A DNA stretch of 64,000 nt from a virus. The notes under the pieces were generated by a model. That model saw nothing but the letters and a program-made list of their open reading frames with translations. It had not been told where the DNA came from and ran no database searches. Where the stretch lies: the IMG/VR virus record IMGVR_UViG_3300045125_000040, positions 62,001 to 126,000 of that record; one strand, 5' to 3'. Position numbers and translations under genes: made by a program. Positions 118 through 63,119 of the stretch are shown here, one piece after another (the stretch's first letter is position 1; each line of letters opens with the position of its first letter).

Positions 118-3100
118 ATGACAGTAAATATTGCCAACACCGCAAATAATAATACTTTTGATTATTGGCGTAATAGAACGAATGAACTAGCATATGCGAT
201 GTCTACGTATGCAGTTACGGTCAATTCTAATACCGCTACTGGCAATGCAGCAATTACAGGAACCTTTACATCAAACAGTTTAATAGCTAACAGTGTTACA
301 ATTAACACTTCTATATCTTTTTGGTAATTCAACTGTTAATACATTTATTAATTCTACTTATATATCAACTGGCAATAGTTCAGTTAATACAATTATTAAC
401 ACATCTTCTATTAATACTTATAGTATAAATTTAGGGTCTAATTTAAGTCTGAGTACAAGTTTATTTTCTGTAGGAAATTCTACAGCAAATTTAACATTAG
501 ACAAAACCCAGATTTATCTAAGAGCGAACTCTACAACTAGTTCTCTTATTAATTCTTCCACTATATATATAACGTCAACTAATGGCGACGCTGTATCTCT
601 GACGCCTGCACTTTTTACATTCGGCACATCTGTAACTATTAATACTAGTGTAATAACTACAAATTCTACAGCTGGTTTTTATGCAAATACTAGTGCATTA
701 AGAGTTGGTTCAAATGTAGTAGTCAATACTTCAACAATCAATCTGGTAATACTATTGCAAACACAGTTGTCAATTCAACTATTTTGCAAATTTCTAATGC
801 TACTCATCTTGCTAACTTAACTCCATCAACTTTATTTGTAGGAAATTCTAGCAGCAATATTTTAATTTCCACATTGTCTGTTTCAGTTAATGGATCTTCT
901 ATAGTCAATACTACAGGAGTTTATACTACAACAGTTAATGCTGCTTCATACACTGTAGGAACTTCTACAGTAGCAAACGCAACTGGTGTTTATACTGGTG
1001 TTGTTAATGGATCTGTTCTACAAGTTGGAACATCAACTGTTGCAAACTCAACTGGTGTTTATACTGGTGTTGTTAATGCTACTTCACATACCACAACTGG
1101 TGTTACAGCAAACGTAACAGGTGTATATCCTACTTCTAACACATCTGGTAGTTCACTAGGTTTAGCAGCAAATAGATGGATTGTTTTTGCCAATACTATT
1201 GATTCTTCTGGTTTGATCACAGGAAGTTCTGGTGCAACAATAACAGGTACAACAAATACTTCTGTAGAATTTAATGTAGGAAGTTCTTTTAAAGCTAATA
1301 CTACTGGAGTATACGCTGGTGTTGTTAATGGTTCTGTTCTTCAAGTCGGAACATCAACTATTGCCAATTCTACTGGTGTTTATACTGGTGTTGTTAATGC
1401 TGCTTCATATACAGTTGGAACTTCATTTACTGCTAATGCGACTTTAGTTAATGCTTCTGCTATTAACATAACAAACCAAACTAACACTGCTACTTTATTT
1501 GTTACAACTTCTGCAAATGTTGGTGTTAATGTTCAGGTCACTACACAAGGACTTAACATTACAGGCAATACCACAACACAACCAACATTGAATTTAGTAA
1601 GTAATTCAGTAGCTTCAGGATTATTTATAGGTAATAATACTGTAACTGGCGCTCCACAATTAATGGTAGCTAATAGTGCTGGTAATACTACAATCAATGC
1701 CACATCTATTGGTTCAAGTTGGGGATTTTCGGTTAATTCAACAGCCACTGTTATTCCCGGAACTTTAACTGCTGCTGTTAATGCTTCGTCTATTTCTCTT
1801 GGTAACTCAACTGTTAATACGGTTGTTAATTCAACATCTATAAGCACTGGTAATTCAACAGTTAATACATTTATTAACTCAACTGCTATTTCTGTAAATG
1901 GTTCATTAAGTGTTCAAAGAACAGCTAGTATTTCCGGTAATACTACTTTATCAGGTAATTGGGCGAATGTAACTAGTGATTTGTTCGTTCGTGGAAATCT
2001 GATTGTAAATGGTTCTGTCACATATACAGGTAATGCGACTGGAGATATCATTCCTGTAAGTAATAACTATTCTTTAGGTAATACATCAAATAGATGGAAT
2101 CTATATGCTGTACAAATTGATAATATTGGTAATACAATTTCTAATAATGTTATAGTAACCAATGTTGTTAATTCAGCTTCATTTACAGTTGGCACAAGTT
2201 CTGTTATCAATTCTACTGGTGTTTGGACCACAGGAACAACAAATTCAGCTATTGTTCAGACCGGTAATGGTTATAATGTTGCTGGTAACGGAATTTATGC
2301 TAATGCTACTCTAATCTGGATTGGTAATAATTCAGTTTCTACTACTGTGAATTCTACAGTCTTTTCAGGAACATCTAACAATACATCATTTGTTGGTTCT
2401 GTTTCTGCCGCTAATGTTGTTTCTAATGCTCAATTGTCTGCTAATTTAGCTAATTATGCGGCACTCGCAGGTGGAGCAACTTTCGTTGGTTCAGTTTCTG
2501 TTTCAAATAATGTCACTATTACTGGTAATTTGATAGTCACGGGAACTACTCTTTATGCAAATGTCACTAATCTTGATGTTAAAGATCTTAATATTACAGT
2601 TGCAAAAGGTGTAGCTTCTGCTGCAGCCGCAGATGGTGCTGGTATAACAGTTGATACTGCTAATGTTGGATGGTATTATCATAATTCTTCTAATACTTGG
2701 CAATCAAATGTTGGTATCACTCCTTCTGCCAATAATACTCTAAACCTTGGTACCACTACATTAAGATGGGCTAACGTTAATGCTAATAACGTTGTTGCTT
2801 CTAATCTGTATGGAACAGTATTAACTGCAACACAGGGTACTATTGATCACAATAGTCTAGCAAATTATGATGCCAATAAACATATTGACCATACTACTGT
2901 TAGTATTTCAACAGCAAATGGTGTTGCTGGCGGCGGAACTATTGCTGCTACCAGAAGTCTATATGTGGTTTCTAATAATGGTATAGTTGCTAATTCTACT
3001 GGTGTTTGGGCAGCAGCCGCTAATGGTATTTCTGTTACTGCCGCTGGTATCAATGTTCTAGGAAACACTGGAATTGTTTCTAATTCTTCTGGTGTATTTG

Positions 3101-3438
3101 CTAATTCTAGCTATATTCAGTCACTTGTAAATGTTTCAAATGGCTCTGTAGTAACATCCGGAACTTCTGCACAGAGTATTGATAATTTTGCTATAGCATC
3201 TTATATGGGTGCGGAATATCTTATAAGTGTTTCAGACAACTCTGCCAATAATAAATACTTATCAAAAGCTCATGTTATGCATGATGGTTCAATCGCTCAA
3301 ATAACAGAATATGGAGCAATAACTTCCAATAATTCTGTTGGTGTGTTTTCTGCTACACAGAATACTACACATATTATATTACAATTCACACCATCATTGA
3401 CTGCAACAACCGTTAAGTTTACTAGAATGGTAGTGTAA
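118..3438 (+). CDS. Long Asn/Ser/Thr-rich repeat tail fibre (frameshifted)
   Basis: Reconstructed protein of about 1,100 residues. The N-terminus contains TFDYWRNRTNELA, an anchor-like motif I associate with fibre proteins of marine T4-like phages. The body is built from degenerate repeats of about 22-24 residues around NSTGVYTGVVNGS and VGTSTVANATG, typical of repetitive beta-structured fibres. The reading frame is broken at a T5 run near 318-322 (one base too many) and near 740 (one base missing); both flanks continue the same repeats, so I treat it as one gene. Exact receptor unknown. It abuts the next small tail gene with an ATG overlapping its stop region. Confidence 0.8.
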
Positions 3439-4082: not shown

Positions 4083-6379
4083 ATGGCTAATAATAGGATT
4101 CAAATCAAAAGGAGTGCCACAACGGCAACACCTGCTTCGCTTCTACCAAGGCGAACTAGCGTTTTCTAACGTTACGGGTGGTTCTGGTGTCCTATTCATT
4201 GGTGATACTTCTAATTCAACGGTTGTAGCCATTGGTGGTGTCAGAAATCCTGGTACTCTAACAGCCAACCAAGCTCTTGTTGCTAACTCTACCAGTGGTA
4301 TTAATCAGGTTATAGTAGGAAATGTGTCATTTACAGGCGCAACTCAGACTATTTCCGCTAATGGTAGTACCGGAACAGCAGGATTTGTGCTTGCTTCTGG
4401 TGGTGCTAGTTCTAATTTATATTGGCAAACTGTTTCTAGCTTTGGTGTTAATACCGCTGCTCAATATACTTGGACTAATACTCAAACTTTCCAAATTGGT
4501 ACAGTAGTTGGTGCAAATCTTGTATCTGACAACACCTCTATAAGATGGGTTGGTAATACCACTACTTCTCCGACTGTTACATTTGCCAATTCTGGTACAA
4601 TTAGTATTGGTAATAGTTCTACCACACAGACTACAGGTCAGATTTTAGTTCAAAATAGTGCTGGTTTATCAACTATTAATGCTGGTTCTATAACAACAAG
4701 CACTTTATATGCAAATTTAATTGGTTCTACTGCAAACCTTTCGACTTCTGTTAATTCTGCTGTTCTTTCTGTTGGAACTAACTTTATCGCTAATTCTAGT
4801 CAATTAACGGTATCTGGAATTCCTATTTCTGCTAATGGAAATGTTGGCTCTGGTGGTCAAGTCCTAGTATCAAATGGTGCTACTGGTTCTCCATATTGGG
4901 CAGCAGTTTCTGCTCTTAGCGGAGGTGTTAATACATCTTATCAATATACTTGGACTAATACTCATACCTTCCAAGCAGGAATAACTGTTGGTGCAAATCT
5001 TGTAACAGATAATACTTCATTAAGATGGGTTGGTAATACTACTACTTCACCAACAGTTACTATAGCAAATACAGGTGCTATTTCAGTTGGTAACAGTACC
5101 ACTACCGAAACTACTGCTTCTGTTACTCTTCAGAACTCTGTATCAGTTTCTACATTAACTCCTCTTTCATTAGCTGTTGGTAATTCTAGTGTGACTTCAG
5201 CACAACAGATTGTTGTGCAGAATACAGCCGGAACAACCACTGTAAATTCTAACTATATTGCAACAACCACTGTTGGCGCAAATCTAGTCGGATCTTACGT
5301 ATCCGTCACCACAGCTAATGCTACTACCTTTAATGGTACTACGGTAAACGCTAACCTAGCAGGATCTTATGTTGCTGTAACAACTGCAAATGCTACCACG
5401 TTCAATTCTGGTGGTATTTTTGTAGCAAATACAATAACATTAAATGCTAATGGTTTGGTTGTTAATTCAACTGGTGCCTATGTTACTGGTCTAACCAATT
5501 CAACATCATTTAATGCTGGTGCAACTGGAACAGGAACAGGTGGTTCTGTTCAGAATACAACCACGATATTTGTTGGTAATAACACTATTAACACTGTTAT
5601 TACTTCTGCTGGTCTTGCTGTTAATGGAACTGCAACCATTGCTAACTCTACTGGTGTTTATACCGGTGTTGTTAATGGTTCTTCAATAACAGTTGGTTCA
5701 AACTTCATAGCAAATAGCACTAAAGTAACATTCACTGGTGCTAATATTGATGCCACTTCTGCATTCCTAAAAGTCGCAGATGCAGTGATCTCAGGAAACC
5801 TAGTAGTCTCAGGTTCTGTTGTATCTATTAATGTTGCAACTCTAATTGTTAATGATAACATCATTGAAGTTGGTCTTAATAATATCACTACAGACGTTGT
5901 TGATACTGGTTGGTATTCTCCTGCTGGTAATGCCACCAATATATGGTATTCCGGTCTTGTTCGTCAAGCAGCAAAATCAACTAATACTAATCCATATTTC
6001 TGGTTGTTCGCTTCAAATACTAATCCAAATACAGCAGCAACTGTAGATACAAGTGCGAATTCATCAACTGCTACTCTACAGGCTTACCTAGTTCCTTATG
6101 GAACCGGTGGTGCGTTTGTAGCTAATTCAACAACTGTTACATTAACAGCAAACTCTACTGTAAATGTTAATATAACAGCAAATACATTATCACTATCCAC
6201 TCCTCTTCCAGGAACATCTGGTGGTACTGGCCGTGCATCTTGGACTTCACAAGATATATTGGTCGCCAATGCAACTAATGGTATTAATGCACTATCTGTA
6301 GGAACTGGTGGTTATGTATTATCAGTATCAACTTGCTGGTATAGTTGTATGGGACTACTTAGATGGCGGAACCTTCTGA
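4083..6379 (+). CDS. Repeat tail fibre with MANNR N-terminal anchor (frameshifted)
   Basis: About 765 residues after joining frames. The N-terminus MANNRIQIKRS followed by YQGELAFSN and LFIGD is the adaptor-type N-terminus of T4-like marine phage fibres; the gene at 6649 starts with nearly the same peptide. The body carries NSTGVYTGVVNGSS-type repeats plus two near-copies of a YTWTNTxTFQ...VGANLV...RWVGNTTTSPTV block. One frameshift near 4140 separates the ATG from the rest and a second near 6330 precedes the C-terminus, which should read WDYLDGGTF. A good ribosome binding site (aggag) precedes the ATG. Confidence 0.78.
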
Positions 6380-6401
6380 TAATAAAAAAGGTGATTATAA
6401 C

Positions 6402-6611
6402 ATGAATGAACAATTTGTCAATATGTACATTGAAAGTTTAGTAAAAGAAGTCACGGAGGGTGTGAAATCTCGCATCCTCCTTGAAACACAACTAAAGTTT
6501 GCTGAAAATTTTAATAAAGAATTACAAGCTAAATTAGAGCAAGCAGAAGCTCAATTAGAAAAACTAAATAAGAAAAAACCTAAAGAAGTAAATACTTCTG
6601 ATACTTTTTAA
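6402..6611 (+). CDS. Small coiled-coil protein between fibres
   Basis: 69 residues. I chose the ATG at 6402 because the upstream in-frame Met lies inside the end of the fibre gene. Leu/Gln/Glu/Lys heptads from residue 25 to 60 predict a coiled coil, ending in a Lys-rich tail. Comparable small coiled-coil proteins accompany fibres in related phages; a fibre chaperone or trimerisation helper is plausible but unproven. Confidence 0.6.
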   Translation: MNEQFVNMYIESLVKEVTEGVKSRILLETQLKFAENFNKELQAKLEQAEAQLEKLNKKKPKEVNTSDTF

Positions 6612-6648: not shown

Positions 6649-8094
6649 ATGGCAAATAATAGGGTTCAAGTAAAACGCACGTCTACAACTGGACGTACGC
6701 CTAATACAACAGCATCATACGCCACAAATTCACAATACATTTCAGCGGGCGAACTTGCTCTTAATATGACGGATGGAATTCTATATTCCTCTAATGGTTC
6801 TGCGCTTATTACAGTTGGTGCTAATAACGTAAATGTTAATGTTTCTAACACTTTAACAACATATGCTTTAAGAGCTGGCGGTTCTTTAGGAACAGTTGGC
6901 CAAATATTAGTTTCTAATGGCACAGCTATTAATTGGGAAACATATCCTTCAACAAATGAACTATTTGTATCAAAATCTGGTTCTGATACAAATAACGGGA
7001 CAAACAATCGTCCATTCCTTACTATTAAAGCTGCTTTAAATGTAGCTACTAGTGGAACAACAGTATTCATTGACAATGGCGATTACACAGAAAATAACCC
7101 TTTAACTGTTCCAGCTGGAGTTGCTGTTGTTGGTAATTCTTTAAGAGGCGTTAACGTTATTGCTCAAAATCCCACGAGCGACGTATTTTGGGTAAATAAT
7201 GGGTCTTATGTGAGAGAAATTACAGTCAAAGACTATACTTCTCCGGCTGCAGCTTTTGCATTTCCGTCAGCTGGTGCAGGAACTATTACTAGAAGTCCTT
7301 ACATTCTTAATTGCACTTCGTTAACTACTAATGGTATTGGTCTTAGAATTGATGGTTCAAAGGCTACCGGAAATAAATCTATAATTGCGGGTCTTTATAC
7401 GATTATCAATCAAAACGGTATAGGCGTTTATATCAGTAATCAAGGATATTCTCAGTTAGTTAATATTTATACAATTTGTTGTAATGTATCTGTTCAATGC
7501 GAATCCGGAGGGTTCTGTTCTTTAAATTGTTCCGATACAACTTTTGGTAATTGGGGGTTAGTGGCTAATGGAACAAGTGCTGCTTTAAATTCTGGTAATT
7601 TGAATGGTGCTCAATCTGGTAACACCTTTTCTTTAAAAAATATAGCTAATGGCACTCCAATTATCAACGGAACTATAAAATTTGGATCTGACCCTAATTT
7701 CTATACTATTGTTAATACAACAGCCCCTGTTTCGAATGTTAGCACTATTAATATTCTCGAAACGATAACAAATACTATAGCAGATAATACTGCGTTTTCT
7801 ATTTTTCAAAGAAGTCAAATTACTGCTTCTGGGCACACATTCGAATATTGCGGCACAGGAACTAATATTTCAAACGCTTCTCCTTTTGCGGGTGGTATTT
7901 CTAATACAGCAACGCAAATTCTTTATAATAACGGAGGCGTTGTTAACTATACTTCTACTGATCAATTTGGTAATTTTAATATTGGTAATAATTTGACTAT
8001 TAATGGTCCTACTTCTACGATTATCGGTGACACTTTTCAAAGATCGTTGTTTGGAATATTAACTCCCTATATTCTTGCTTTGGAAGGAAGTTGA
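6649..8094 (+). CDS. Tail fibre with beta-helix (pectate-lyase-like) domain
   Basis: 481 residues, intact. Residues 1-100 form an adaptor (MANNRVQVKRT, SAGELALNMTDG). From about residue 105, FVSKSGSDTNNGTNNRPF starts a DUF1565-like right-handed beta-helix: short-turn repeats with GVAVVGNSLRGV and Asn-rich ladders. The C-terminus DTFQRSLFGILTPYILALEGS-like end (last 20 residues) is a conserved closing segment in related phages. Such helices bind or cleave surface polysaccharide; no catalytic triad is evident, so binding is the safer call. The stop codon sits 2 nt before the heme oxygenase ATG. Confidence 0.75.
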   Translation: MANNRVQVKRTSTTGRTPNTTASYATNSQYISAGELALNMTDGILYSSNGSALITVGANNVNVNVSNTLTTYALRAGGSLGTVGQILVSNGTAINWETYPSTNELFVSKSGSDTNNGTNNRPFLTIKAALNVATSGTTVFIDNGDYTENNPLTVPAGVAVVGNSLRGVNVIAQNPTSDVFWVNNGSYVREITVKDYTSPAAAFAFPSAGAGTITRSPYILNCTSLTTNGIGLRIDGSKATGNKSIIAGLYTIINQNGIGVYISNQGYSQLVNIYTICCNVSVQCESGGFCSLNCSDTTFGNWGLVANGTSAALNSGNLNGAQSGNTFSLKNIANGTPIINGTIKFGSDPNFYTIVNTTAPVSNVSTINILETITNTIADNTAFSIFQRSQITASGHTFEYCGTGTNISNASPFAGGISNTATQILYNNGGVVNYTSTDQFGNFNIGNNLTINGPTSTIIGDTFQRSLFGILTPYILALEGS

Positions 8095-8095
8095 T

Positions 8096-8620
8096 ATGGT
8101 TATTAAAAATTTGATAACAGAAAAACACAAAGAAGCAGAAAATACATTATTTTTTAAAAAATTAATATCCAAAAAAATAACAAAAGAAATTTGGGCTAAT
8201 TTTCTTTTTAATAAAATGTTATTCTATAATGAAATAGAACATAAATTGAATTTAGAAATATTTAAAGATCTCATTAGAACTGAAAAATTAAAAAAAGATT
8301 TTTTAAATCTAAAAGTAGAAACATTTTCTATCAAAAATTCTGTTTTTGAATATATAGATTATTTAAACAAAATTAATGAAAAAGAATTAATGGCTCATGT
8401 ATATGTTTGGTATATGGGAGATTTAAATGGAGGGAATGTGATTAATAAGATTATAGATTTTGAATCTTCCAGTTTGGTATTTGAAAATTCAGAATATCTG
8501 AAACAGAAAATTTTAGATTACATAGATATTAGTATGTTAGAGGAAATTAATAATTCGTTCGACTGGGCTATAAAAATTTTGAATGATTTTGAAAAAGATT
8601 TACTAGAGGAATCTAATTAA
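8096..8620 (+). CDS. hmuO/ho1-like: Heme oxygenase (biliverdin-forming), phage-encoded
   Basis: 174 residues, intact. Family hallmarks are present: a proximal-helix motif EKHKEAEN placing the heme-ligand histidine at residue 11 (compare TKxxHxxAEN), and the distal-helix signature AHVYVWYMGDLNGG (GDLNGG at 108-113; usual form RYLGDLSGGQ). The C-terminal helix INNSFDWAIKILNDFE also matches. Heme oxygenases use O2 and electrons to open heme to biliverdin, CO and Fe(II). The ATG at 8096 has a ggaag ribosome binding site; its stop overlaps the next tail gene. It is inside the fibre operon and transcribed with it, so late expression is likely. No bilin reductase is seen in the window. More AT/Lys-rich than the neighbouring fibres, consistent with separate acquisition. 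Shorter than most cellular homologues. Confidence 0.88.
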   Translation: MVIKNLITEKHKEAENTLFFKKLISKKITKEIWANFLFNKMLFYNEIEHKLNLEIFKDLIRTEKLKKDFLNLKVETFSIKNSVFEYIDYLNKINEKELMAHVYVWYMGDLNGGNVINKIIDFESSSLVFENSEYLKQKILDYIDISMLEEINNSFDWAIKILNDFEKDLLEESN

Positions 8621-8947
8621 TGGCAAATTTAAATACGTTTAAAAACGTTAGCGCAAATTTAACTTCATCAAATACAACAGTATATACCGCTCCAGCAGGA
8701 TATACTTCTATTGTGTTGATGGCACAAGTTACAAATATAACTACTTCTGTAGCTAATGTTACTGTTGGTTGGAACAATGGCACTACAAATACCGAATTAG
8801 TTTTTAATTTATCAACACCTCAAAATGATGCTTTGAATGCTTTAGTTGGAAAAATTAGTACTTGCAAATTCTCATTACGTATATGCTTCAGCTAGCTCAA
8901 ATAACACTTTAAAAATGACTTTAAGTGTTTTAGAATCATTAAATTAA
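8620..8947 (+). CDS. Small beta-rich tail protein (frameshifted)
   Basis: About 108 residues after repair. The start MANLNTFKNVSANLTSSNTT and YTAPAGYTSIVLMAQVTN belong to a small structural protein found in fibre regions of T4-like marine phages. The frame breaks near 8860; the other frame continues to ...LKMTLSVLESLN and a TAA at 8945-8947. The start overlaps the heme oxygenase stop by one base. Role unknown beyond presumed virion localisation. Confidence 0.6.
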
Positions 8948-8956
8948 AGGTTTAAA

Positions 8957-11900
8957 ATGGTAAAAACTGTATCTGGATTTAATAATCTAACTGTTTCGGA
9001 TAAATTAACATTGAAAACAGTTGTTGCCAATGGAAGTGTTGGTACATCTGGTCAAGTATTGACTTCTAATGGTTCTGGTAACGCTTATTGGTCTACTTTA
9101 GTCGGTGTTAATACTTCTGCTCAATACACTTTTACTAATACAATAAATTTTTCTAATTCCATAACTATTGATAATAATAAAAATTTAAATTTCAGAACTG
9201 TTAATACTTCTGCTCAAGCATCATTCGTTCAACAGAGTGACGATAATTTCGTCATGTACACTACTAATTCTGCATATGGTCAAAGAGCAGTATGGTCGAT
9301 ATTTGCTAATAGTTCGTCAAGTAATTTAAACTTTTCTGTAAGAACGCAATTTAATGGCGGTTTGTATATACCAACGGGAGTCACCCTTCTTGATTCTACT
9401 GGTTCTCAAGGTTCTGCTGGTCAAATTTTAGCATCAAACGGTAGTGGTAATGTTTATTGGGTATCACCAAGCGTTGCATCAGTAAATACTTCTGCTCAAT
9501 ATACTTGGACAAATACGCATACTTTTCAGGCTAACGTTTCCTTTACAGGAAATGGTATTGGTATAACATCAAATACAGGTGCGATATACGTTGGTGGTAT
9601 TTCTGATGCTAATTGGAAAATTGGTAGAAATCTTGGAGTTTATACTAAATGGAGATATACGAATAACAGCTTAGACATTGCTGTAGCTAATTCTAATCTT
9701 GAAGGATTTACGATTGGTAATTCTATCAATCCAGGAAATGCATATTTTGAAACAGGTTTTCTTGGAACATTTATTGCAAGTAATGTTACTATTGGTAATT
9801 CTTCTTCAAATGTTTCTATTAATTCTACCGCTTTTTCAGGAACATCTAATAATTCTTCTTATCTTGGCGGTGTGTTAGCCGCTTCATATGTTCAAAATAC
9901 TGACTCTAGGACATTATCAGGTAATATATCTTTTACTGGTGCCAATTTAGTCGTTTTAGGAACTAATACGTATATCACATCTAATGTATTAATTGGTAGC
10001 ACCGCTTCTTTCTATAGTATAAATGGTCAGGCCAATGCTTCTGGTGGTAATTTCATAGCTAATGCATATGCAACATTAAGTGGGGCCGGTGGAAATTATC
10101 TAGCATTTGGACAGCAGACAAATTTTTCTCAATGGATTCAATCTGGATTTTCAAGTGCAGGAACGCCAGTTTATTATAATATAATTTTAAATCCGTTAGG
10201 CGGTAATATTGGTATTAACAATACGGCTCCAACTGATAGATTATCCGTAAATGGCAATACTTACATCGGCGCAAACTTAACTGTAGCTGGTGCTAATTTA
10301 ATTGTTTCAACTGGTGTTATTTCTGGTAATGGCACTTCTATCACTAGCGTTAATGCTATTGCTCTAAATGGTCAACCAGCATCTTATTATACTAATGCTA
10401 CTAATATTACAACTGGAACTTTGCCTTATGCTCAGATTCCAGCGAATATTGTAAATACAACAGGTTCGTTTACTCTTTCCGGTAATACTACATTAGCAGG
10501 AACTAATACTGTAATTAGTTCCAATTTAAATGTTACTGGAACTTTCATTAATGTTGCTTCGGCATTCGTAGCAAATTCTACTGGCGCTTATCACACTGGA
10601 ACTATGAATGCTGCTTCCCACACGGTGGGAACGGCTTTCACCGCCAACGCTACTGTTGTTAATGCTGTATCTTACTATGCCGGAACAACGTTAATTGGTA
10701 ATACTACTGGACCATATGGTAAGACTGAAGGTAATTTGAATGTCAATAGTAGTTTGATTTCTAATACCTTATTAAGAGTTGATAACAGAAGTATTGTTGC
10801 CAATGATACTCCTGCTGGTTATCTCCGTTTCGGTTTCACTTCTTTTGCTGTCAACAATACTTCACCGTATGGAGATTTTCTTCAATTAAGAAGTTATACA
10901 GATTCATCTGGCGGTAGTGATAACCTTTTAGTTTTTAATAAATCTACTATCGGTGTTCGAGTTTATCAAGCGGCTTGGACTAACTCCACAACTGGTAATA
11001 CTTCGGCTTATACCAATTATAAAGACCTTGCGTTTACTGACGGTACTAATGCTACTGGTACATGGAACATTACAGCCAATAATGCTTCAAATTTAGGAGG
11101 CACAGCGGCTGCATCTTATCAGTTAAATTCCACTTTGAATGCGAATATTGCCAGCTACCTTCCGAATTATACTGGTGTTGTTAATGGTTCTTCGTTAGCG
11201 GTAGGAACTTCTACGATTGCCAACTCTACCGGTGTTTATACAGGCGTAGTAAACGGGTCGTCGATAACAGTTGGGACTGCATTTACTGCTAATGCTACTG
11301 TAGTTAATGCTGTATCTTACTATGCTGGCTCTACTTTAATTGGTAATACTACTGGTCCTTATGGTAAGACAGAAGGTAATTTGAATGTTAACAGCGCATT
11401 AACAGCTAATAACTCTACCAATCTTGGTGGAACAGCAGCTGCTTCTTACCAATTAAATTCTACATTAAACGCAAATATCGCATCATATCTACCTACATAC
11501 ACTGGTGTAGTAAATGGTTCTTCATTGGCGGTAGGAACTTCAACAGTTTCTAATGCTACTGGATTATGGACAACAGGAACGGTTAATGCTGCTATACATC
11601 AGGCAGGATCGCCATTAACAGGAACTGGTGGATTTTATGCCAATACAACGACATTGATTGTCGGTAATAATACTATAAACACAACTATTACTTCGGCTGG
11701 TCTAACGGTTAATGGCGCTTCTGTAGTAAATTCATCAGTCGTTAACTCTGCAGCACATACAATTAGCACTACATTTATAGCCAACACTACTGGTGTTTAT
11801 CATACTGGAACTATGAACGCCGCTAGTTATACTACTGGTTCCACTGGAACTGGAACTGGTGGATTAATTGCTAATGTTACTACTTTGTTTATTGGTAACA

Positions 11901-12745
11901 ATACAGTTAATGCTTTCTTAAATACAACTCAATTAAACATTAATGCAGTAACAATAGCTAACACTACTGGTGTATATACTGGAACTATAAATGCTGCTAG
12001 TCATACAGTTGGAACTAGCACCATTGCTAATTCTACTGGCATTTATACTGGTATTGTTAATGCTACTACAATTTCTACTGGTTCTGTTAACGTAATTAAT
12101 GCTTCAGGATTAACAACTACAGCAAATGTAAGTATTGGCGCCGCTGGCGATCTTATTATTACTGCAGGTGCTGGTATTTCTGCTAATGGTGGATTTGGAA
12201 CCTCTGGACAAGTTCTTACTTCTAATGCTTCTTCAATTTACTGGTCAACCATTGCAGCTGGTGCTACACTAAACGCCAACAATACTGAAACTGGAACTTT
12301 CTATTTCGGTATGGCCAATACTACTTCAGGAACTTGGTCAAACGCTGTAGTTTCGACTACAAAAATATCATTCGTTCCTAACACAGGCGCACTAACTGTA
12401 AACGGTTCTATAAGCGCAACAACTAAGTCATTCTTGATCGACCACCCAACTAAATCTGGAATGAAGTTGCGTTATGCTTCGTTGGAAGGTCCAGAAAACG
12501 GCGTTTATGTTCGTGGTAAAATAAACGGTTATGTTATTGAATTGCCTGACTACTGGACTGGTCTTGTTGATGAAGATACCATTACAGTTCAACTAACCGC
12601 TATTGGTGAGCCACAAAATCTTTATGTTGTAAAAATTAGTGACAACCAAGTGTTCATTTGTGGTGAAAATGGTTCAATGCCTTATTGTTATTACACTGTA
12701 TATGGTGAGCGTAAAGACGTTGATAAGTTGATAGTGGAGTATTGA
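8957..12745 (+). CDS. Giant repeat tail fibre with conserved C-terminal adhesin domain
   Basis: 1,262 residues, the longest intact frame in the window. It opens with GQVLTSNGSGNAYWST blocks and YTFTNT/YTWTNT segments, followed by many NSTGVYTGVVNGSS and YYAGTTLIGNTTGPYGKTEGN-type repeats (two near-identical copies around 10.7 and 11.3 kb). The last 110 residues switch style: KSFLIDHPTKSGMKLRYASL, EGPENGVYVRGKINGY, IELPDYWTGLVDEDTITVQL. This is the compact 'HPT...LEGPE..VY.RG' domain found at the ends of many phage and bacterial adhesins. A distal receptor-binding role is inferred. Confidence 0.82.
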   Translation: MVKTVSGFNNLTVSDKLTLKTVVANGSVGTSGQVLTSNGSGNAYWSTLVGVNTSAQYTFTNTINFSNSITIDNNKNLNFRTVNTSAQASFVQQSDDNFVMYTTNSAYGQRAVWSIFANSSSSNLNFSVRTQFNGGLYIPTGVTLLDSTGSQGSAGQILASNGSGNVYWVSPSVASVNTSAQYTWTNTHTFQANVSFTGNGIGITSNTGAIYVGGISDANWKIGRNLGVYTKWRYTNNSLDIAVANSNLEGFTIGNSINPGNAYFETGFLGTFIASNVTIGNSSSNVSINSTAFSGTSNNSSYLGGVLAASYVQNTDSRTLSGNISFTGANLVVLGTNTYITSNVLIGSTASFYSINGQANASGGNFIANAYATLSGAGGNYLAFGQQTNFSQWIQSGFSSAGTPVYYNIILNPLGGNIGINNTAPTDRLSVNGNTYIGANLTVAGANLIVSTGVISGNGTSITSVNAIALNGQPASYYTNATNITTGTLPYAQIPANIVNTTGSFTLSGNTTLAGTNTVISSNLNVTGTFINVASAFVANSTGAYHTGTMNAASHTVGTAFTANATVVNAVSYYAGTTLIGNTTGPYGKTEGNLNVNSSLISNTLLRVDNRSIVANDTPAGYLRFGFTSFAVNNTSPYGDFLQLRSYTDSSGGSDNLLVFNKSTIGVRVYQAAWTNSTTGNTSAYTNYKDLAFTDGTNATGTWNITANNASNLGGTAAASYQLNSTLNANIASYLPNYTGVVNGSSLAVGTSTIANSTGVYTGVVNGSSITVGTAFTANATVVNAVSYYAGSTLIGNTTGPYGKTEGNLNVNSALTANNSTNLGGTAAASYQLNSTLNANIASYLPTYTGVVNGSSLAVGTSTVSNATGLWTTGTVNAAIHQAGSPLTGTGGFYANTTTLIVGNNTINTTITSAGLTVNGASVVNSSVVNSAAHTISTTFIANTTGVYHTGTMNAASYTTGSTGTGTGGLIANVTTLFIGNNTVNAFLNTTQLNINAVTIANTTGVYTGTINAASHTVGTSTIANSTGIYTGIVNATTISTGSVNVINASGLTTTANVSIGAAGDLIITAGAGISANGGFGTSGQVLTSNASSIYWSTIAAGATLNANNTETGTFYFGMANTTSGTWSNAVVSTTKISFVPNTGALTVNGSISATTKSFLIDHPTKSGMKLRYASLEGPENGVYVRGKINGYVIELPDYWTGLVDEDTITVQLTAIGEPQNLYVVKISDNQVFICGENGSMPYCYYTVYGERKDVDKLIVEY

Positions 12746-12746
12746 T

Positions 12747-13298
12747 ATGGCAGTAGCATATGGACCAACTTCCATAGCTAAATTTGGTGATCCTACAACT
12801 TCTGGTTTGTTGGGTAAAAGATATGTAGGATGCTATACCAATGGCGTTCCGACTCCTGCTCTAAATGACCCTTCATGGTTCAGAACGGCCACTTTGCAAG
12901 GTAGTACCAGCACAGTAACAGCATTAAACGCTTTTACCAGTAGCGCAGATACTTATAGCTGGATGTTCTTAGGTTATTTTAAACCAACAACTACAGAAAT
13001 ATATACGTTTTATTGCACTGTAGACGATAACGGGCAAATATGGATTGGAGATAAAGCAATAAGCGGTTATGACACTTCTAATTCTTTATTAACAACCACT
13101 TCTGCTGGCACAGAATTTTCTGCTGCTATATCGTTGATCGCAGGTAAATACTATCCTATCAGAATTATGTTTGGTGAAAATTTAGGTAATGATTATATCA
13201 CGGTATCGTTTGCTACAGCTACTATTGCAAAAACTACAAATGGTTCGGGATATTATTTTGGCGGCGATTCTGCCTGGAATAGATTTGGAGCACTCTAA
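12747..13298 (+). CDS. PA14/GLEYA-like adhesin domain protein
   Basis: 183 residues, intact. The central part (WMFLGYFKPTTTEIYTFYC, VDDNGQIWIGDKAI, AGKYYPIRIMFGENLG) follows the PA14/GLEYA beta-barrel pattern: aromatic strand, D-D-x-x-x-x-W-I-G loop, then YPIRI. PA14-type domains bind carbohydrates in many adhesins. It begins 2 nt after the giant fibre and overlaps the next gene by one base, so it belongs to the same transcript. No signal peptide, consistent with a virion part. Confidence 0.75.
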   Translation: MAVAYGPTSIAKFGDPTTSGLLGKRYVGCYTNGVPTPALNDPSWFRTATLQGSTSTVTALNAFTSSADTYSWMFLGYFKPTTTEIYTFYCTVDDNGQIWIGDKAISGYDTSNSLLTTTSAGTEFSAAISLIAGKYYPIRIMFGENLGNDYITVSFATATIAKTTNGSGYYFGGDSAWNRFGAL

Positions 13299-54386: not shown

Positions 54387-54460
54387 GCGGGTGTAGCTCA
54401 ACGGTAGAGCAGTCACTGCTCGCAGTGACAGGGTGTTGGTTCAAGTCCAGCCACCAGCAC
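54387..54460 (+). tRNA. tRNA-like gene, anticodon uncertain
   Basis: D arm TAGCTCAACGGTAGAGCA, T arm GTTGGTTCAAGTCCAGC and acceptor GCGGGTG/CACCAGC (one mismatch) give a tRNA shape. The anticodon arm GTCAC/GTGAC encloses an 8-base loop TGCTCGCA, one base too long, so the anticodon (GCT, CTC or TGC are possible readings) cannot be fixed. One inserted base, as in many genes here, is the simplest explanation. No CCA is encoded. Confidence 0.65.
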
Positions 54461-59071: not shown

Positions 59072-59079
59072 TATTTATA
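59072..59079 (-). promoter_or_regulatory. T4-type late box on minus strand
   Basis: TATAAATA on the minus strand, 33 nt before the ATG at 59038 and overlapping the stop of the isomerase gene. Spacing matches plus-strand late promoters, so the rnh-phoH block may also be expressed late. Confidence 0.5.
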
Positions 59080-59662
59080 GTTTTAAACTCTTTCTATCTT
59101 TATTTGTATACACTAATCTAATTTGTTGTGCTAAAGTATGCATTAGAATCTGATGACAATCTTCAACTACACCGTAATTGTTTGATTTTACATGTATAAT
59201 TTTTTCACAAAGGGAGTCTGATACAACCTTTCCACCATCAAAACCAACAAAAGCAATACTGGTGTAATTCTTTTTATTTGCCGCTTCAAGACCTTTTATG
59301 ATATTAGGAGATCTTCCAGATGAAGAAATAGCTATCACCAGAGCATGTTCTTCGTTTATCCATTCAATTTGTTTTGAAAAAATTTCATCATAAGAAATGT
59401 CATTAGCAATAGCTGTCATAAGTGACATGTTAGCGGCCAGATTACGAATATTAGGGAACAAATCATGAACATCCGTTCTAATACCCTTTGTATGATCACA
59501 TCCCCAATGTTCGGCAATGGCAGCAGAACCACCATTACCCATGACAACAATAGGCATTTTGATTTCCATACTGATAACTAGTTTATCAAAAATATTTTTT
59601 AACATGTCTTCGTCAACAGTATCTAATGCATCATTGATCATTCTCTGATAATTTTTTATCAT
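59075..59662 (-). CDS. gmhA-like: SIS-domain sugar isomerase (GmhA-like sedoheptulose-7-P isomerase)
   Basis: 195 residues, intact. IVVMGNGGSAAIAEHWGCDH (phosphosugar-binding loop), TAIANDISYDEIFSKQIEWI, ALVIAISSSGRSPNIIKGLE, KNYTSIAFVGFDGGKVV and a C-terminal HQILMHTLAQQIR match GmhA: SSSGxSxN phosphate site and a catalytic Glu/His pair region. It would convert sedoheptulose-7-phosphate to heptose-7-phosphate, first step of NDP-heptose synthesis. TAATG overlap with the kinase gene upstream. Confidence 0.82.
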   Translation of the reverse strand: MIKNYQRMINDALDTVDEDMLKNIFDKLVISMEIKMPIVVMGNGGSAAIAEHWGCDHTKGIRTDVHDLFPNIRNLAANMSLMTAIANDISYDEIFSKQIEWINEEHALVIAISSSGRSPNIIKGLEAANKKNYTSIAFVGFDGGKVVSDSLCEKIIHVKSNNYGVVEDCHQILMHTLAQQIRLVYTNKDRKSLKL

Positions 59663-60639
59663 TAGATAGTCTCCAAAGTAGAGCCACTTTTTGTGAATTT
59701 GAAATTAAATCTATCATAGTTTTCATGGCTTCTAACAGTCTGTTTTTATGTTTATCCTGTACATATAGAAGTAGATATCCTCCACCACCAGCGCCAAGAA
59801 TCTTACCACCAAGAGCACCATTAGACATGGCTCTATGATACATTTCATCTATCTTATCATTAGATACGTTGTCTGTCAACTGCTTTTTTATCTGCCAAGC
59901 CTGATCTAATAGATTACCAAAATCATCAACTTTTCTTTTCTGTAAAAGTTTTAGTCCTGTTTTGGCTACACTCAACCATAGCTTTAGTCTGTTCTATGGT
60001 AACAACATTTTTTAAATTTTCTACCTGTTTTGTTAGAACAGAAGCAGTACCTGTCGGTTTATACCTGTATTAAAACAAACAAGATTGTTTGTTTAGCTCA
60101 AGTAATGCAAGTTGATCTACATCAACCGGCTTGACTTTTTATATGATTTTACTAAAATAAATTGCATTGAATCCACCAAAAGCAGCGGCGGACTGATCTT
60201 GTTTACCAATAGGTTCATTACATTTTACAATTTCAATATAAGAAGCTAGTTCTGCTAGTTCATTATGATCAATGTTTCTACCAGTTGTTATCCTATGCAA
60301 GGCATTAATAAGACCCACTGTGAATGTTGATGATGATCCTAGACCTGTTCCTCTCACCGGAACGTCAGAGAAAGAACAAATTTCAATATTGGACGGCAAG
60401 TCAAAATGTTTTAAACATTCTCTTACACGATTATGTTTTACTTCCTCAATGTTATTAACATGTTCTAATTCTGAATAGATAACTTTTAGATGAGGAGCAA
60501 CACATCTATTAATAGCCAAATAGATATGACTATTAATAGTTGTTGAAAGAACCATTCCATCATTTTCATCATAGAATTGAGGAATGTCAGATCCACCACC
60601 AAAGAATGAAATTCTTAAAGGAGTTTTTGAAATAATCAT
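59662..60639 (-). CDS. hddA-like: GHMP sugar kinase (HddA-like heptose-7-P kinase, frameshifted)
   Basis: About 325 residues after breaks near 60140, 60070, 59970 and 59680. IISKTPLRISFFGGGSDIPQ (HddA-type start), VPVRGTGLGSSSTFTVGLIN (GHMP phosphate loop, 97-104), EPIGKQDQSAAAFGGFNAIY (catalytic Asp region), NGALGGKILGAGGGGYLLLY (motif 3). Ends KSGSTLETI. Phosphorylates D-glycero-D-manno-heptose-7-P at C1. Related GHMP kinases for fucose exist, but the neighbouring GmhA and GmhB favour heptose. Confidence 0.82.
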
Positions 60640-61624
60640 ACTTTATACACAAACATTTGTCCAGAGTTTTTCTTGACTCGACTGTTGGATATTGATTCAA
60701 TAGTTCTCTTAGTGTTGATTCCCATTGTGAACTGATCTTTTTAATATTAAATCTGTTATCAGCATATGCTTTAACAAATTTTAAATAATTTTGTGCTTCG
60801 TCGGTATTAACAACATTAATAGCATGTTCAAGATATCTATAAAACATTTGTGCATGTTTATTGATATCTTCATTGTATTGATACATGGTTGTTAGCATAC
60901 CAGAAGTATCAGAAAGAGCAGCTAGATTAGGATGAACACACATTAGTCCTGCTGACATTGATTCAATAAGAACTCTACATGCGGTTTCTTTCCAAATATT
61001 AGGATATGCTAGAATATGTGCGTTCTCCACATGCTTTCTCAATACCTCTTGTGAGGCAAATCCATGATATGTCATGTGTGAATGATTTCTGATTTTATCA
61101 TATAACGGTTCAAAATTCTTATCAGCATCTTCCCATCCATAAATCTTGAATGAAGAAAATACATCAAGATGAATGTTATCATACTTCTTTGATAGACTAT
61201 CAACTACAGGATATAGAAGTTCAAGACCTCTCTGTGGTGTTGAGAAATAAATCAAATTTATTTTATTTTTATCTTTTGGTAAAAGATTTAAAGGCTCAAA
61301 TGGAGTTTCAATAATATCAACCTTTTCGTTCAAAGGAATATTTAATTTTAGATTGAAATCATTAAGATGCCAATTACAATTGAAAATCATTTTGTGAAAT
61401 CTATTACGACTATTTTCATCCTTGAGATGATTTAATTCAGGATCTTCTGGTAGATCATGGCACCAGTAAATACGAATCTTATCCTCTTCAAGATCTCTGA
61501 AACGTGAAGGAATGATCTGAAATTCTTTTAATAGTTCTTCAGGAACATACTTAGCAAGTGTTCTCTTGGTAATCTCAGTACCGCCATTTGCATTCTTTGA
61601 TACTTCATTTTCTTCAAAGCCCAT
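60636..61624 (-). CDS. Glycosyltransferase, GT-B family
   Basis: About 329 residues; a break near 60665 hides the true C-terminus NSGQMFVYKV, whose stop overlaps the kinase ATG. NANGGTEITKRTLAKYVPEE (N-terminal GG loop), IYFSTPQRGLELLYPVVDSL, TYHGFASQEVLRKHVENAHI and AYPNIWKETACRVLIESMSA (E-x7-E donor site) are typical of GT4-like retaining enzymes. Probably transfers the activated sugar made by its neighbours; acceptor unknown. Confidence 0.82.
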
Positions 61625-62158
61625 TATTTAACTCCATTATTAATTTACATGCAGACCATAAGTCTTCTTTTATAAAATCTGGTTTGATATCTCCATATTC
61701 ATCTGGAATATTCCAAACTTTAATACCAACGTATATAGTAGTCAAGCCAGACTTATTTCCCGGCACGATATCTTTCCAACGATCACCAATCATATAACTT
61801 TTAGATCTATCAATTTCATATGTTCTTATCAATGCTTCTATCATACCATTATTTGGTTTATACAAGTCTGAATCTTTATTAAGAGCATATAGGACATGAT
61901 CTACACCAGCCTCATCTTCAAGAAATGTACATATATCATCTAGGTCGGTCATATACATTTCGCCATCCATAACGCCTCGGCTTGGTTTGTAACCACAAAT
62001 ACCATATAGTTATTTTTTTGAATTTTTCAATAGCTTCAAAGACATTAGGATATAATTTTAATTCATCTAATGTCCATGGGGATCATCATTCTTCCATCTG
62101 GTCGTGAAACCAGATGATTGATAACTCCATCTTTATCTATGAATACTGCTTTGCGCAT
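61614..62158 (-). CDS. gmhB-like: HAD phosphatase (GmhB/HisB-like, frameshifted)
   Basis: About 180 residues after breaks near 62085, 62015 and 61985. MRKAVFIDKDGVINHLVSRP (DxDGV nucleophile), WTLDELKLYPNVFEAIEKFK, VVTNQ (motif 2), KPNNGMIEALIRTYEIDRSK (Lys motif 3) and YMIGDRWKDIVPGNKSGLTT (motif 4 GDRxxDI). GmhB removes the C7 phosphate of heptose-1,7-bisphosphate. Overlaps the glycosyltransferase start by 11 nt. Confidence 0.8.
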
Positions 62159-62553
62159 CTTTCTCTCAATTCACTAGATGAATAGTTATGTACTCTTTTA
62201 ATAAATTCAATCTTTATACCACGATCATTACATACTTCTGATCCTGTAATTTTTTTATTTTCATAATCAGAACCAATAAATCTTTTATCAATATTAAGTG
62301 TTGCTAACATATTGATAATATCTTGTTCCGACTCATATGGAATAATTTCATCAACTGCTTTCATAGCATTGAGCTGTTTCCATCTTTCATATACAGATTG
62401 AATTGGTTTATTTTTCGTATCTGGTCTCTCAGTTGTGGGGTCAAAGTGTAACCCCACAATGAGAAAATCACATTTTCTTTTGGCCTCTTCAAGCATAGCC
62501 ACATGTCCTGCATGAAGTAGATCAAAAGCACCAAAAGTAATTCCTATTATCAT
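62137..62553 (-). CDS. Nucleotidyltransferase (HldE C-terminal/TagD-like)
   Basis: 138 residues from ATG 62553. IIGITFGAFDLLHAGHVAML (HxGH at 14-17), KCDFLIVGLHFDPTTERPD, IQSVYERWKQLNAMKAVDEI (ERW), FIGSDYENKKITGSEVCNDR, and YSSSELRER in place of the usual ISTT motif. This fold makes ADP- or CDP-activated sugars or polyols. With GmhA, HddA and GmhB, an NDP-heptose product is likely; which nucleotide is unclear. Overlaps the phosphatase by 22 nt. Confidence 0.82.
   Translation of the reverse strand: MIIGITFGAFDLLHAGHVAMLEEAKRKCDFLIVGLHFDPTTERPDTKNKPIQSVYERWKQLNAMKAVDEIIPYESEQDIINMLATLNIDKRFIGSDYENKKITGSEVCNDRGIKIEFIKRVHNYSSSELRERCAKQYS
62433..62459. repeat. Perfect inverted repeat inside nucleotidyltransferase gene
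   Basis: TTGTGGGGT (62433-62441) and ACCCCACAA (62451-62459) form 9-bp arms with a 9-nt loop in the coding strand region for LHFDPTTER. Could be a chance result of codons or a translation pause structure. Confidence 0.35.
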
Positions 62554-62554
62554 T

Positions 62555-63119
62555 TTATATAATCCTAAAACATCCGCCAAAGTCGTGTGGTTTACCAATA
62601 TAATCTATTTTATATTTCGTTTCTGATAAAAATTCTTCAAACGCTTTAAACTCATGATTTCTCCAAGGTTCTGTATCTCCACCATAACCAATAATTTCAT
62701 CAAAAACCAAAATTGTTCCCTTTTGCATTCTTGGTTTCAAACAATCAAAAATTGTTTTGGTTGAAGAATATAAATCGCAATCTATATGAACAAAGGCAAC
62801 TTTTTCCTTGTGTTTTTTTAAAAATTCAGGCAAAGATTGTTCCATACCACCCGTCAATATATACTACATTTTCTGGTATATCAATTGGTTTTGCAGACTT
62901 AAATTCTCCTTTTTTATGCGTATATCCTTCCCAATCTTCTGGTAATCCTTCAAAAGAATCAAAAGAATATAAAATATTTTCTTTTAAAACAGATGATAAT
63001 ATTTGAGTACTCCCACCACTACCAAATTCTAATATCAATCCATCTGTATTAATATATGATATAAAATCTTCTAAACTTTTATTTTCAGAAGATTTAATTT
63101 TATCTACATCTATTATCAT
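62555..63119 (-). CDS. TylF/MycF-like class I methyltransferase (frameshifted)
   Basis: About 188 residues after a break near 62845. TDGLILEFGSGGSTQILSSV (SAM loop), ENILYSFDSFEGLPEDWEGY, KKHKEKVAFVHIDCDLYSST (metal-binding D-x-D), KGTILVFDEIIGYGGDTEPW match the macrocin O-methyltransferase family (Mg2+-dependent sugar O-methylation). Position in the sugar cassette suggests methylation of a surface sugar. Ends one base before the nucleotidyltransferase start. Confidence 0.78.

What the first reader, a model, noticed from the sequence alone, without database searches (positions are those of the whole stretch)
8096..8620. Heme oxygenase embedded in a tail-fibre operon
A clear heme oxygenase (His11 in KHKEAEN, GDLNGG distal helix at 108-113) sits between a beta-helix fibre and a small tail protein, overlapping the latter. 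Known viral heme oxygenases (for example cyanophage ho1) are usually linked to bilin reductases or photosynthesis genes; here none is visible in 64 kb. Late expression with adhesins is odd for a metabolic enzyme. Possible roles: release of iron from host heme late in infection, making biliverdin for a host reductase or photoreceptor, CO signalling, or even packaging with the tail. The Ser-to-Asn change in GDLSGG is unusual but conservative.
Basis: partly seen in the sequence, partly recalled or inferred. Interest (0 to 1): 0.85.

Follow-up and report, generated by a model that had tools for sequence, protein, structure and literature searches.

The report
Phage heme oxygenase without its partner
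A T4-like phage carries a gene for a heme-splitting enzyme tucked between two tail genes; related phages nearly always carry it next to a second, pigment-making enzyme that this phage lacks, so here the enzyme probably serves some other purpose, such as freeing iron from the host's heme.

Summary
ORF 8096-8620 (+, 174 aa) is a real canonical heme oxygenase (PF01126, E 9e-16; AlphaFold2 pLDDT 94.6; best solved match Synechocystis HO-1). It lies between a fibre gene and a small tail gene, with coupled reading frames. It is not an assembly join: four other contigs (L002, L174-176) have the same order. In 72 of 80 loci of the small tail gene, the fibre gene abuts it directly, so the heme oxygenase is inserted cargo.

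By phylogeny it derives from the phage hemO-pcyA/X (bilin reductase) cassette: 118 of 140 related viral loci carry a bilin reductase, 117 of them within 300 bp. This record of 158,790 bp has none. A single origin for the reductase-less copies is rejected (AU p 0.0008). All 13 invariant residues are kept. The heme-propionate arginine (Arg183 in human HO-1) is Leu here and in its sister lineages.

Tail-region placement is not unique: Pelagibacter phage Mosig has its cassette beside neck genes. The GDLNGG Asn is ordinary among phages. Most likely this is an active heme-degrading accessory gene with host iron and heme turnover as the benefit; the benefit is inferred, not shown. New variant of a known kind.

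The parts
8096..8620 (+). heme oxygenase CDS, 174 aa
   Evidence: PF01126 E 9.3e-16; AF2 pLDDT 94.6, pTM 0.90; Foldseek best match 1we1, TMq 0.84
8126..8128 (+). codon of His11, predicted proximal heme ligand (His25 of human HO-1)
   Evidence: invariant in all aligned phage and bacterial HOs
8408..8410 (+). codon of Trp105 at the Arg136 (human HO-1) position; shared with the related clade, including bilin-reductase-linked HOs
   Evidence: W in 70, R in 48 FDBR-linked HOs; W in all 17 FDBR-less HOs
8417..8434 (+). distal-helix GDLNGG (residues 108-113)
   Evidence: G108, D109, G112, G113 invariant; residue 111 variable
8513..8515 (+). codon of Leu140 at the Arg183 (human HO-1) heme-propionate position
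   Evidence: R in 116 of 118 FDBR-linked HOs; L in window, L002, L174-176; E in L026, L221, L227
8082..8088 (+). GGAAGGA, probable ribosome-binding site for the HO, inside the 3' end of the fibre gene
   Evidence: sequence; function inferred from position
6649..8094 (+). beta-helix-type tail fibre gene (481 aa) directly upstream
   Evidence: phrog_17885 tail fiber 3.2e-65; 91.6% identical to L002 homologue
8620..8947 (+). small conserved tail-module protein, frameshifted in this record near 8848; intact 109 aa in L174
8957..12745 (+). next large fibre gene of the same operon (1262 aa)

Best explanation
This is a phage-borne canonical heme oxygenase (HO-1/HmuO type). Its ancestors belonged to the phage hemO-pcyA/X bilin cassette. 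In this lineage it lost the bilin reductase and became accessory cargo between two conserved tail genes, so it is translated late from the tail operon. Using host ferredoxin or another host reductant, it should open host heme to biliverdin, CO and Fe2+. With no reductase of its own, biliverdin is probably an end product, and the most likely benefit is iron release or heme turnover in the dying cell. Shown by sequence: identity, ancestry, insertion point, lack of reductase in the record, conserved catalytic residues. Inferred: catalysis, late timing, electron donor, benefit.
For: Family and fold. All 13 invariant residues are kept, including His11, Glu15, Tyr103, Gly108, Asp109, Gly112 and Gly113. 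Ancestry: the HO nests in a phage clade of 32 rows (100*), and window + L002 + L174 form a clade at 100/99. Of 140 related viral loci, 118 carry a bilin reductase (117 within 300 bp, one at 586 bp). No PF05996 in the 158,790-bp record, and a profile built from close relatives finds none even in 20-aa stop-to-stop fragments, while controls ring. None in 16 other reductase-less records. A single clade of reductase-less HOs is rejected, p-AU 0.0008. Same fibre-HO-small tail order in L002 and L174-176. The site without HO appears in 72 of 80 loci. Purifying selection: HO dN 0.43, dS 1.06 against L002, fibre dN 0.053, dS 0.735, so the HO has diverged in place for about as long as its neighbour. A freshwater phage HemO of the cassette kind (CB_2) makes biliverdin IXalpha, and iron supply has been proposed as a role (PMC11480375). 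The same record encodes a Dps/ferritin-like protein.
Against: No activity is shown. The window copy evolves unusually fast (end branch 1.3-2.1, 44-45% identity to L002 against 92% for the neighbouring fibre), which could mean relaxed function. The Arg183-equivalent is lost. The record is linear and may be incomplete, so a distant bilin reductase cannot be excluded. The iron benefit rests on exclusion and on a Dps gene far away in the record. No ferredoxin of the Fer2 family (PF00111) is encoded, so the electron donor probably comes from the host.
Confidence: 0.68

Rival explanations
1. The HO supplies biliverdin to a host-encoded user: a host bilin reductase or a bacteriophytochrome that binds biliverdin. 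The phage thereby keeps a bilin-making role without its own reductase.
For: The ancestral phage cassette makes bilins, and phage PcyA product assembles a phytochrome (PMC11480375). Most relatives keep the reductase. The R136W change is present in reductase-linked HOs, so it is presumably compatible with alpha-cleavage.
Against: The reductase is absent; the propionate Arg that helps fix heme orientation is lost in this lineage, which may spoil alpha-specificity; the host is unknown. Nearest terminase relatives are Sinorhizobium phages at 56-57% identity.
Confidence: 0.15
2. The product isomer has shifted. Loss of the Arg183-equivalent loosens heme seating, so the enzyme makes delta/beta or mixed biliverdin, useless to bilin reductases, and works purely as a heme-degrading enzyme like Pseudomonas PigA/HemO.
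For: R183 is kept in 116 of 118 FDBR-linked HOs but lost twice among FDBR-less lineages, as Leu (this clade) and Glu (L026, L221, L227). The human HO-1 R183E mutant is known for altered regiospecificity (references in PMC7948506; PDB 1xk2 title). Propionate contacts control heme placement (PMC6018153).
Against: Only two events; the sign test has no power. Lys at the K18 and K179 positions and the Y134-equivalent tyrosine are kept. Other reductase-less lineages keep Arg. Leu is not Glu.
Confidence: 0.2
3. The gene is decaying cargo: a remnant of the cassette under relaxed selection, soon to be lost.
For: Very long branch, dN/dS about 0.4 against about 0.07 for the fibre; low GC (0.21).
Against: Reading frame intact in three diverged lineages although this record is full of frameshifts; all 13 invariant residues kept; high-confidence fold; dN below dS.
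Confidence: 0.12
4. HO is a tail component or tail-assembly factor packaged in virions.
For: Coupled reading frames with fibre and small tail gene.
Against: The fibre and small tail gene abut without HO in 72 of 80 loci; no extra domain.
Confidence: 0.04

Closest known systems
HemO of Pelagibacter phage Mosig EXVC030M (QOI69018.1)
   Same: Heme oxygenase of a T4-like phage, among structural genes, 32% identical
   Different: Directly followed by a bilin reductase and near ferrochelatase and 2OG-Fe(II) genes; lies beside neck genes, not between fibre and small tail gene
Phage hemO-pcyX / hemO-pcyA(-valaS) cassettes (PMC11480375), including CB_2 vHemO
   Same: Same phage HO family; this HO nests among cassette HOs
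   Different: No bilin reductase; Arg183-equivalent lost; different genomic site
Cyanophage heme oxygenase (S-SSM6a, S-SSM7)
   Same: PF01126 in a T4-like phage
   Different: Groups with cyanobacterial HO1, sits among photosynthesis and metabolism genes
Synechocystis HO-1, HmuO, human HO-1
   Same: Fold and catalytic residues
   Different: 174 aa, shorter; Trp at the Arg136 position, Leu at the Arg183 position

Membership tests
Canonical heme oxygenase (PF01126) | Profile match over the curated cut-off | tested here: met
   58.7 bits against 23
Canonical heme oxygenase (PF01126) | Proximal His ligand and distal GD..GG helix | tested here: met
   H11, G108, D109, G112, G113 invariant and kept
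Canonical heme oxygenase (PF01126) | All-helical HO fold | tested here: met
   pLDDT 94.6; TMq 0.84 to 1we1
Canonical heme oxygenase (PF01126) | Propionate-binding set (K18, Y134, K179, R183 of human HO-1) | tested here: inconclusive
   K4, Y103 and K136 present; R183 position is Leu140
Canonical heme oxygenase (PF01126) | Heme binding and cleavage to alpha-biliverdin | not testable with these tools
   needs purified protein
Phage hemO-pcyA/X bilin cassette | HO in the phage cassette clade | tested here: met
   nested, 100*
Phage hemO-pcyA/X bilin cassette | Bilin reductase next to or near the HO | tested here: not met
   none in the 158,790-bp record
PigA/HemO-like delta/beta heme oxygenase | Rotated heme, beta/delta-biliverdin product | not testable with these tools
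   only loss of the R183 position points this way

The most novel reading that the evidence does not exclude
Phages have repeatedly converted the bilin-cassette heme oxygenase into a stand-alone heme-degrading enzyme. In at least two such lineages, including this one, loss of the heme-propionate arginine shifted the product away from biliverdin IXalpha, making a phage enzyme dedicated to iron release or heme removal and deployed late with the tail genes.
Probability: 0.2. Interest if true: 0.62.

Novelty: new variant of a known kind. Interest (0 to 1): 0.48.

Why it matters
Why phages of hosts that do not build phycobilisomes carry heme oxygenase and bilin reductase is an open question stated in the literature (PMC11480375). 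Phages that keep only the heme oxygenase separate the two candidate benefits, pigment making and iron or heme turnover. The several independent losses of the reductase found here are natural experiments. The product isomer of this enzyme would directly test whether the pigment is dispensable.

Tried and rejected
Assembly join: rejected, the same two junctions occur in L002 and L174-176. Recent import or replacement of the HO: not supported, since dS of HO (1.06) is close to that of the fibre (0.74) and GC3 matches the neighbours; NG86 dS near saturation is rough. Low GC as a sign of foreign origin: explained by amino-acid make-up. R136W as the odd feature of this lineage: rejected, it is clade-wide including reductase-linked HOs. 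Late-promoter scan TATAAATA: 16 sites against 10.7 expected, none on the + strand in the first 16 kb of the window, so uninformative. Test of R183 loss against reductase loss: only two events, no power. R2 ribonucleotide reductase search: none.

Full report
What is there. The ORF at 8096-8620 codes for a 174-residue protein with an ATG start, a GGAAGGA motif in front, and the described His11 and GDLNGG motifs. Pfam heme oxygenase matches at E 9.3e-16. PDB sequences that match are human, bacterial and cyanobacterial heme oxygenases. AlphaFold2 gives pLDDT 94.6 and pTM 0.90, and Foldseek's best match is Synechocystis HO-1 with heme, TM-score 0.84 on the query. None of 20,000 base shuffles kept such a frame open. 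The gene is real.

Residues. In an alignment with phage and bacterial heme oxygenases, the 13 invariant residues (H11, E15, Y44, E48, Y86, H101, Y103, G108, D109, G112, G113, F129, E150) are all kept. The Asn in GDLNGG is at a freely varying position (F 65, Y 28, H 13, S 5, N 5, A 2 among reductase-linked phage HOs). Trp105, at the Arg136 position of human HO-1, is shared by 70 of 118 reductase-linked HOs, so it does not mark this gene. Leu140 does: it stands at the Arg183 position, which is Arg in 116 of 118 reductase-linked HOs. The two exceptions, Mosig and a near copy, have RR nearby and may be misaligned. It is Leu in the window, L002 and L174-176, and Glu in L026, L221 and L227. Lys18 and Arg183 of human HO-1 bind the heme propionates, and R183E changes regiospecificity (PMC7948506 and its reference to Wang et al. 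2005; LepHO contacts in PMC5542595; PigA discussion in PMC6018153). K4, Y103 and K136, the other propionate contacts, are kept. The mapping to human numbering of K18, K179, Y134 and R136 was made by motif alignment with the human sequence from my own knowledge.

Relatives and ancestry. The window HO falls inside a phage clade, apart from cyanobacterial and cyanophage HOs. In a careful tree it groups with L002 and L174 at 100/99. Of 140 related viral loci examined, 118 carry a ferredoxin-dependent bilin reductase: 117 within 300 bp of the HO, and L046 at 586 bp. The published phage cassettes hemO-pcyX and hemO-pcyA(-valaS) and Pelagibacter phage Mosig are of this kind. The window record of 158,790 bp has no bilin reductase by Pfam. 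A profile of close relatives run against all stop-to-stop fragments also finds none, while controls score 1e-87 or better. Sixteen other reductase-less records have none either, including ones of 103 and 57 kb. The reductase-less HOs do not form one clade (p-AU 0.0008), so decoupling happened several times (five changes on the tree).

The site. In the window the order is fibre (6649-8094), HO, small tail protein (from 8620), large fibre (8957-12745). L002 and L174-176 have the same order, with the HO start touching or near the fibre stop and the HO end overlapping the small tail gene. These are separate contigs of other metagenome records, so an assembly join is excluded. In the 80 best loci of the small tail protein, 72 have the fibre gene directly in front of it, three have the HO (the L174-176 contigs), four start at the contig end and one has another ORF (my count; near-copies not removed). 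The HO is therefore an insert between two tail genes that normally adjoin. That speaks for cargo and against a structural part.

Age and selection. Against L002 the fibre is 91.6% identical in amino acids and the HO 45%. Yet synonymous divergence is similar (dS 0.74 and 1.06), so both have been diverging in place for a similar time. The HO changes faster in protein (dN 0.43 against 0.053) but still under net purifying selection (NG86, rough at this divergence). The long branch of the window HO (2.1) is the strangest quantitative feature, and it could mean relaxed or changed function.

Placement in other phages. Upstream of 109 viral HOs, ClpS is the commonest neighbour (51), with virion-structural and tail-fibre families in a smaller number. 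Mosig's cassette lies between tail-fibre and neck genes. Structural neighbourhood is thus a minority but known arrangement.

Host and phage. The phage is T4-like. The terminase is closest to Sinorhizobium phages phiN3 and phiM12 (56-57%), then Pseudoalteromonas, Methylophilales and Pelagibacter phages. A cyanobacterial host is not indicated; the host is unknown.

Mechanism. Most likely the enzyme binds host heme through His11, takes electrons from a host ferredoxin-type donor (no Fer2 protein is encoded in the record by family search), and cleaves heme to biliverdin, CO and Fe2+. Late timing follows from the tail operon (inferred). With no reductase, the benefit is most simply iron or heme turnover; a role in iron supply has been suggested for the cassette too (PMC11480375). 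A Dps/ferritin-like gene in the same record fits this but proves nothing. Rivals are biliverdin for a host user, a shifted product isomer, decay, and packaging.

Judgement. Heme oxygenase in phages is known, and its place among structural genes is known. New, as far as the papers searched here show, are the conserved insertion between fibre and small tail gene, the loss of the bilin reductase in several lineages, and the loss of the propionate arginine in two of them. It is a new variant of a known kind.

Noticed in passing
window 118-3438, 4114-6405, 8620-8947; record 87533-97815: Many genes of this record are split by frameshifts (portal in four ORFs, major capsid and tail tube in two, several fibres) relative to L002 and Mosig, suggesting uncorrected indels in the assembly.
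   Followed up: partly
window 54387-54460: tRNA gene called with a four-base anticodon (ctcg); may be a real odd tRNA or another indel of the assembly.
   Followed up: no
L009:1279-1725 (record 144279-144725, minus strand): Phage-encoded Dps/ferritin-like protein (PF00210, E 3.6e-23) in the same record.
   Followed up: partly
L009:13550-14490 (record 156550-157490, minus strand): FtsH-like protease (AAA part and peptidase M41, 1.6e-51), split into two ORFs.
   Followed up: partly
window 59075-62598, minus strand: Sugar-pathway cluster: SIS isomerase, GHMP kinase, glycosyltransferase, CTP-transferase-like; resembles heptose activation genes.
   Followed up: partly
window 12747-13298: Tail-region protein with GLEYA/PA14 domains (3.4e-18), a domain best known from yeast adhesins.
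   Followed up: no
L017-L229, upstream of HO (for example L177:7688-7990): ClpS adaptor gene lies directly upstream of 51 of 109 viral heme oxygenases; L177 also has an Hsp20-like gene in front of it.
   Followed up: partly
L026:5619-8401: UvsW-like helicase interrupted by an intein-looking insert (L221 has the uninterrupted gene) just downstream of a reductase-less HO.
   Followed up: no
L013:5787-6483 (Synechococcus phage S-SSM7): Heme oxygenase annotated in separate pieces, while near-identical S-SSM6a has it whole.
   Followed up: no
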